From: Acidobacteriota bacterium | GTDB lineage: Bacteria; Acidobacteriota; Terriglobia; Acidiferrales; UBA7541 | Reading direction: 5' to 3' | DNA: 64,000 bases | Assembly (NCBI GenBank): GCA_013289825.1 | Contig: JABCZF010000011.1 | Location: 1 to 64,000, forward strand | Shown: piece after piece, positions 51,900 to 52,253 of the stretch | How positions within the stretch are numbered: position 1 is the stretch's first letter | Layout: every line of letters begins with the position of its first letter | Made by a program: the position numbers and the translations under genes | Notes under the pieces: generated by a model | What the model was told of the DNA's origin: nothing | What the model saw: only the letters and a program-made list of their open reading frames with translations | Database searches by the model: none

Positions 51900-52253
51900 C
51901 TAGCTCAGCAACTTCCTGAAAGCCTCTTCGTCGTAGCCAAGAACAATTTGGTCGCCACGAATGACAACCGGCCGACGGATCAGATTGGGCACTTTCGCCA
52001 TCAACTTGATGGCTTCCGGCCTCGTCGGCGGCTTCTCTTTCATATTTCTCGCTCTGTACAGTTCATTGCGTGGGTTTAGAAAATGTTCGTAGTCGCGAGA
52101 GGCGATTAGCTTGTCGAGTTCGGCTTCGCTCAAGCGTTCTTTGTCCAAGTCGCGAGTGTCAAGTTCGGCGCCATGCTCGAGCAAGAAACTTCTTGCTTTG
52201 CGGCAAGTCGTTCAAGTTGGTTTCTCAAGAAACCGCAATTTCACTTTCTTCAT
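51900..52253 (-). CDS. ArsC/Spx-like thioredoxin-fold protein with in-frame UGA at redox Cys (candidate selenoprotein)
   Basis: Manual translation from ATG 52253: MKKVKLRFLEKPT[UGA]TTCRKARSFLLEHGAELDTRDLDKERLSEAELDKLIASRDYEHFLNPRNELYRARN...VIRGDQIVLGYDEEAFRKLLS. UGA at 52214-52212. Confidence 0.75.
52180..52197 (-). promoter_or_regulatory. candidate bacterial SECIS apical stem-loop
   Basis: Minus-strand AGCAAGA-AGTT-TCTTGCT: 7-bp stem, tetraloop with G in position 2, loop starting 22 nt after UGA. Confidence 0.5.

What the first reader, a model, noticed from the sequence alone, without database searches (positions are those of the whole stretch)
51900..52253. Candidate selenoprotein: ArsC/Spx-like protein with in-frame UGA at the first Cys of CxxC
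Seen directly: the ORF track starts this protein at 52184, lacking its N-terminal strand and redox motif. Extending on the minus strand to ATG 52253 gives MKKVKLRFLEKPT-UGA-TTCRKARSFLLEHGAELD..., a complete ~117-residue ArsC/Spx-like protein. The single UGA lies exactly where family members have the first Cys of CxxC, giving UxxC. The ATG sits 8 nt after the rhodanese stop with a GAGAG SD-like sequence, so 52253 is a credible start. A stem-loop (AGCAAGA-AGTT-TCTTGCT) has its loop 22 nt after the UGA with G at loop position 2, consistent with the general bacterial SECIS layout. Established: Sec commonly replaces redox Cys in thioredoxin-fold proteins and is routinely mis-annotated as a stop or late start. 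Inference: this host decodes UGA as Sec here.
Basis: partly seen in the sequence, partly recalled or inferred. Interest (0 to 1): 0.92.

Follow-up and report, generated by a model that had tools for sequence, protein, structure and literature searches.

The report
Acidobacterial ArsC/Spx-like selenoprotein gene
A small redox protein in a soil acidobacterium carries the rare amino acid selenocysteine, written as an apparent stop codon, where its relatives carry cysteine; the kind is known, but this large branch is missed by current annotation models and has switched between cysteine and selenocysteine several times.

Summary
The minus-strand ORF 52253-51900 has one in-frame TGA (52214-52212) at the first Cys of CxxC, 8 nt behind a rhodanese gene. 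In 201 related genomes, 90 carry the gene. Of 99 loci read, 67 have TGA exactly there, 26 have TGC and 6 TGT. A hairpin at 52180-52197 fits the published bacterial SECIS layout: 74 of 78 TGA loci have one, against 2 of 31 Cys loci. selA, selB and selD are in the genome. tRNA-Sec was not found in this 86.6%-complete assembly, but nearly all same-genus relatives have it. Pseudogene and sequencing error are excluded. I conclude it is a genuine UxxC selenoprotein, probably a thiol-disulfide oxidoreductase. It is neither canonical ArsC nor Spx by curated models. The kind is already known (ArsC-like, UxxC; papers of 2006 and 2008, NCBIfam NF041106), but this branch scores far below that model (35.9 against 85 bits). 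Sec and Cys forms interchange repeatedly at the same locus, even between sister species. In one genus Sec appears to have been regained from a Cys ancestor with a newly built SECIS. No selenium incorporation has been shown experimentally.

The parts
51900..52253 (-). ArsC/Spx-like UxxC selenoprotein gene, 117 aa, Sec at residue 14 and Cys at 17
   Evidence: frame; Pfam ArsC 63.3 bits against cut-off 24; homologs; predicted fold
52212..52214 (-). in-frame TGA read as selenocysteine (codon 14)
   Evidence: 67 of 99 loci TGA, 26 TGC, 6 TGT at the same aligned codon
52180..52197 (-). SECIS hairpin AGCAAGA-AGTT-TCTTGCT, 7 bp, tetraloop 21 nt after the UGA
   Evidence: at the same place in nearly all TGA forms, absent from Cys forms
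52254..52261 (-). GAGAGCAA between the rhodanese stop and the ATG, Shine-Dalgarno-like
   Evidence: read directly
52262..52585 (-). upstream rhodanese-domain gene, probable same operon; ends in TGA used as an ordinary stop
   Evidence: PF00581 63.1 bits; adjacent in most same-genus relatives
51239..51847 (-). downstream 3-hydroxyacyl-CoA dehydrogenase NAD-binding-domain gene (neighbour)
   Evidence: conserved neighbour in many relatives

Best explanation
The gene encodes a 117-residue thioredoxin-fold protein of the ArsC/Spx superfamily whose N-terminal redox motif is Sec14-x-x-Cys17. SelB delivers Sec-tRNA to the UGA, directed by the hairpin 21 nt downstream. It most likely works as a cytosolic thiol/disulfide oxidoreductase: the Sec14 selenolate attacks an oxidised sulfur or peroxide substrate and the intermediate is resolved by Cys17 as a selenenyl-sulfide, then reduced by a cellular thiol system. 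The rhodanese upstream suggests a sulfur or persulfide substrate. Shown computationally: the UGA/Cys pairing, the conserved hairpin, the machinery genes and the fold. Inferred: Sec incorporation itself, the catalytic cycle, the substrate and the partner. The confidence given is for the selenoprotein reading; for the thiol/disulfide enzyme role it is about 0.6.
For: UGA at codon 14 in 67 of 99 loci, Cys in the rest, every other codon open. In a phylum-wide sample of 396 genomes, further carriers with a single TGA appear in several families. The hairpin meets the published bSECIS layout: 74/78 TGA against 2/31 Cys; better than synonymous-codon shuffles at p<0.05 in 46/59 TGA forms against 1/31 Cys. 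Several different stem sequences keep the fold, e.g. AGCAAGA/TCTTGCT, GCCAGGA/TCCTGGC, GGCGAAG/CTTCGCC, GGTCAAGA/TCTTGACC, GCTCGAC/GTTGAGC. The common loop AGGTCT is identical to the E. coli fdhF loop. selA, selB, selD in the genome; tRNA-Sec in relatives. Model at pLDDT 94.4, best PDB matches Spx and ArsC-related proteins.
Against: tRNA-Sec was not found in this assembly. The structure was predicted with Cys in place of Sec. Substrate and redox partner rest on neighbourhood alone; rhodanese is not adjacent (by a strict 120-nt rule) in about half of the loci scored. No protein-level data.
Confidence: 0.95

Rival explanations
1. Pseudogene or sequencing/assembly error: TGC or TGT read as TGA, or a decayed gene.
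For: The window comes from an incomplete metagenome-type assembly, and the two nearest relatives in the protein tree have Cys.
Against: The same TGA recurs at the same codon in 67 of 99 loci from independent assemblies; only one further stop was seen anywhere (TAG in G453); Sec forms carry a hairpin that Cys forms lack.
Confidence: 0.01
2. Real stop, with the protein made from an internal start (TTG 52184), or a short N-terminal peptide as product.
For: The mechanical ORF list starts there.
Against: The 94-aa product lacks strand 1 and the CxxC motif; residues before the TGA are conserved in frame with those after it across the family; Cys forms are continuous; that TTG lies inside the hairpin.
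Confidence: 0.02
3. UGA is read as another amino acid (Cys or Trp) by a suppressor tRNA or altered code.
For: tRNA-Sec was not detected in this assembly.
Against: UGA ends the adjacent rhodanese gene; selA, selB, selD are present; relatives carry tRNA-SeC(tca); the SECIS would be unnecessary.
Confidence: 0.02
4. The protein is a Spx-type RNA-polymerase-binding redox regulator rather than a redox enzyme, with Sec sharpening its redox switch.
For: Spx is the best sequence and fold match; the model TIGR01617 is named Spx/MgsR family.
Against: 56.8 bits against the 123-bit Spx cut-off; Spx Gly52 aligns to a gap or to a non-Gly residue; no C-terminal tail as in Spx; the window protein falls just below TIGR01617 (74.1 against 75.05).
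Confidence: 0.12

Closest known systems
'Arsenate reductase 2' selenoproteins (cd03032, UxxC) of the Global Ocean Sampling survey, PMC2398784; ArsC-like selenoproteins, PMC1794560
   Same: ArsC/Spx-type thioredoxin fold with Sec at the first position of UxxC, encoded by UGA
NCBIfam NF041106 ArsC_rel_Se_1 (listed as arsenate reductase-like protein, UxxC, in PMC13188914)
   Same: ArsC-family (seleno)protein with UxxC
   Different: window protein scores 35.9 bits against a cut-off of 85: a separate branch not captured by the model
Arsenate reductase selenoprotein with UxxS (ArsC 1, PMC2398784)
   Same: ArsC family, Sec at the catalytic Cys
   Different: no resolving Cys (UxxS); this family has UxxC
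Bacillus subtilis Spx
   Same: fold (TM-score 0.84), CxxC position, R-R-P motif, G-[YF]-[DN]-E C-terminal motif
   Different: Cys instead of Sec; alpha-CTD contact Gly52 not conserved here; tail absent
E. coli fdhF SECIS
   Same: hairpin shortly after the UGA with the loop AGGTCT identical to the family's commonest loop
   Different: loop 3 nt further from the UGA here; the window itself has loop AGTT

Membership tests
bacterial selenoprotein | in-frame UGA at a position where homologs have Cys | tested here: met
   TGA 67, TGC 26, TGT 6 of 99 loci
bacterial selenoprotein | SECIS hairpin after the UGA (3-9 nt loop, 4-16 bp stem, G in loop positions 1-2, 16-37 nt spacing, MFE <= -7.5; PMC13188914) | tested here: met
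   window: 7 bp, loop AGTT, spacing 21; region MFE -9.5 (33 nt), -13.8 (longer region); the isolated 18-nt hairpin alone is -7.4
bacterial selenoprotein | selA, selB, selD in the genome | tested here: met
   all over curated cut-offs
bacterial selenoprotein | tRNA-Sec (selC) in the genome | tested here: inconclusive
   not found in this 86.6%-complete assembly; present in most same-genus relatives
bacterial selenoprotein | selenium in the protein | not testable with these tools
   needs 75Se labelling or mass spectrometry
PF03960 ArsC superfamily | Pfam gathering score 24 | tested here: met
   63.3 bits
canonical glutaredoxin-dependent arsenate reductase (TIGR00014) | model cut-off 106.05 bits | tested here: not met
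   36.9 bits
canonical arsenate reductase | catalytic Arg60/Arg94/Arg107 of R773 ArsC | not tested
   no residue-level alignment to R773 ArsC was made
Spx (NF002459) | model cut-off 123 bits | tested here: not met
   56.8 bits
Spx | Gly52 contacting the RNA polymerase alpha subunit | tested here: not met
   aligned to a gap or a non-Gly residue; that Gly52 is the contact is from general knowledge
TIGR01617 arsC_related (Spx/MgsR) | model cut-off 75.05 bits | tested here: inconclusive
   74.1 bits for the window protein, just below
NF041106 ArsC_rel_Se_1 | model cut-off 85 bits | tested here: not met
   35.9 bits

The most novel reading that the evidence does not exclude
At one orthologous locus the active-site residue switches repeatedly between Sec and Cys, and in at least one genus (g4; G076, G077, probably G087) Sec was regained from a Cys ancestor by building a new SECIS at the same place from different codons. 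That would make Sec loss reversible and give a natural series for how a SECIS arises and how it constrains the protein it is written in.
Probability: 0.6. Interest if true: 0.72.

Novelty: new member of a known kind. Interest (0 to 1): 0.52.

Why it matters
Gene finders cut this protein at the UGA and lose its active site; NCBI's selenoprotein model for ArsC-like proteins does not reach it, so a sizeable acidobacterial selenoprotein branch is probably mis-annotated. A 2026 review (PMC13188914) calls Sec-to-Cys substitutions in bacteria rare, documented mainly for FdhA and SelD. This family offers several switches in one ortholog group, including sister species (window genome Sec, G031 Cys), with SECIS loss and apparent SECIS regain visible in the DNA. 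It makes the reversibility of selenocysteine use, and the price the SECIS exacts on the protein sequence, directly testable.

Tried and rejected
Pseudogene, sequencing error, internal start and codon reassignment were tested and rejected (see rivals). tRNA-Sec in the own genome: the best three Rfam hits were tRNA-Trp, -Leu and -Ser; a relative's tRNA-Sec as DNA query gave only 18-19-nt chance matches. Folding energy alone separates Sec from Cys forms poorly (19/59 against 3/31 below p 0.05); the local hairpin does so well. A first 41-genome SelB tree had rows read in the wrong frame; the corrected one is, where G039 is still a suspect long branch. One family scan failed on coordinates and was redone with letters. 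A scan of the window for other TGA-plus-hairpin candidates gave this gene and five others that I judged by eye not to look like real proteins. Two literature look-ups gave nothing on point.

Full report
Observation. The minus-strand frame from ATG 52253 to TAG 51900 encodes 117 residues with one TGA at codon 14 (52214-52212) and Cys at 17. The upstream gene (52585-52262) is a rhodanese (PF00581); it ends in TGA, so TGA is an ordinary stop here. The ORF list starts the protein at TTG 52184, inside the hairpin.

Homologs. Of 201 genomes of the genus, family and class, 90 carry a relative at E <= 1e-8. I read 99 loci (seven of them are repeat records of the same contigs): TGA 67, TGC 26, TGT 6 at codon 14; codon 17 is TGC or TGT in all. 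No other stop lies inside these. In a phylum-wide sample 72 of 396 genomes match the family profile, many with a single TGA; of 20 of these fetched, one (G453) has an additional TAG. Two loci labelled Deltaproteobacteria also have TGA.

SECIS. A 2026 review (PMC13188914) gives the bacterial consensus: 3-9 nt loop, 4-16 bp stem, G in one of the first two loop positions, 16-37 nt spacing, MFE <= -7.5. A core test of stem (at least 6 bp), loop G with GG or GU, and spacing is met by 74 of 78 distinct TGA loci and 2 of 31 Cys loci, the latter at other positions. Of the four TGA exceptions, two have 5-bp stems, one carries an AAGCAAAAGGTCTTTTGCTT hairpin that my energy-based pick passed over, and G077 has a stem with a mismatch. 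In 69 of 78 the loop begins 21-22 nt after the UGA. Against synonymous-codon shuffles the hairpin is significant in 46/59 TGA and 1/31 Cys forms. The shuffles used codon frequencies that include the TGA forms themselves, which makes the test conservative. Different stems preserve the fold while loop GGTC, AGTT or GTT is kept. The E. coli fdhF SECIS, confirmed by matches in 5,403 E. coli genomes, has the identical AGGTCT loop. The protein bears the imprint: residues 22-25 are mostly G-L-L-L in Sec forms and A/K-F/Y-L/M-E in Cys forms.

Machinery. selA, selB and selD are over cut-off. tRNA-Sec is not found over the Rfam cut-off (the best three hits are tRNA-Trp, -Leu, -Ser) or by DNA similarity. 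The same search finds it in most same-genus relatives, and ARAGORN calls tRNA-SeC(tca) in all ten loci examined. In two relatives it sits just downstream of a large cyclase-like gene that is also not found in this assembly. With 86.6% completeness an assembly gap is the simplest reading; that is inference.

What the protein is. Pfam ArsC 63.3 bits. It fails the arsenate reductase, Spx and NF041106 models and falls just under TIGR01617. AlphaFold2 with 21 family sequences gives pLDDT 94.4; the best solved matches are Spx, ArsC-related proteins and YffB. Residues 14 and 17 sit at the start of the first helix; R94-P95 precede a strand; both pairs are invariant in the family alignment. These are the features of a thioredoxin-fold oxidoreductase (established knowledge). 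The Spx contact Gly52 is not conserved. I therefore favour a redox enzyme over a Spx-type regulator. The rhodanese neighbour is shared by Sec and Cys forms, so a sulfur-related substrate is plausible but unproven.

Evolution. The ArsC tree, with the redox and hairpin columns masked, needs 9 Sec/Cys changes, but starred branches force only 2. SelB, an independent marker, gives firmer nodes. The window genome (Sec) and G031 (Cys) are sisters at 100/98 among the genomes sampled, and the tree needs 6 changes with at least 4 forced (G039 is a suspect long branch and should be discounted, so the forced number may be lower). In genus g4, G076 and G077 (Sec) lie inside Cys species at 97-99% bootstrap nodes, and monophyly of the Cys species is rejected (AU p 0.00055). 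Their hairpin (GCTCGACAGTTCGTTGAGC in G076) uses other arms and register, and the residues around it are of Cys type (KARQFVEQRG). One loss plus one regain explains this in two steps; losses alone need about four. I give regain about 0.6. Direction elsewhere (Sec ancestral, Cys derived) is likely from the wide spread of Sec but was not modelled; the window's own Sec could be retained or regained.

Prior art. ArsC-like selenoproteins are in PMC1794560 (2006) and as 'Arsenate reductase 2, cd03032, UxxC' in PMC2398784 (2008), and in reviews. deep-Sep lists 3 known selenoprotein genes in one acidobacterium without saying in the passage read which they are. So the kind is known; this branch and its switching are what is new here, as far as the held library shows.

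Verdict: a real selenoprotein gene (0.95), a new member of a known kind, with a more interesting evolutionary pattern than the original finding.

Noticed in passing
L115 (G076), L093 (G077), L129 (G087): Sec forms nested among Cys species of genus g4, with a SECIS of different arms and register: apparent regain of Sec.
   Followed up: partly
L142 (G010) 2065-2163 and 5714-5812; L147 (G032) 1969-2067 and 2228-2326: Two tRNA-Sec genes in one genome; in G032 the two are identical and 259 nt apart, in G010 they differ and lie 3.6 kb apart.
   Followed up: no
L193 (G453:C2:19787-20113): One family member has an additional in-frame TAG just after the hairpin, 12 codons after the TGA: error, decay or something else.
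   Followed up: no
L136 (G161) and L137 (G135): A more distant ArsC-family protein (about 31% identity), also with TGA at the first Cys and an 8-bp hairpin; closest to the arsenate reductase model (95.6 against 106.05 bits).
   Followed up: partly
G041, G046, G173: Genomes at least 97% complete with selB but no tRNA-Sec over the Rfam cut-off in a scan that scored only 20 candidates each; G046 and G173 have the TGA form. Could be divergent tRNA-Sec or a limit of the search.
   Followed up: no
50647-51177: Macro-domain gene (PF01661) conserved near the ArsC/Spx gene in many relatives, with enoyl-CoA hydratase and 3-hydroxyacyl-CoA dehydrogenase genes.
   Followed up: partly
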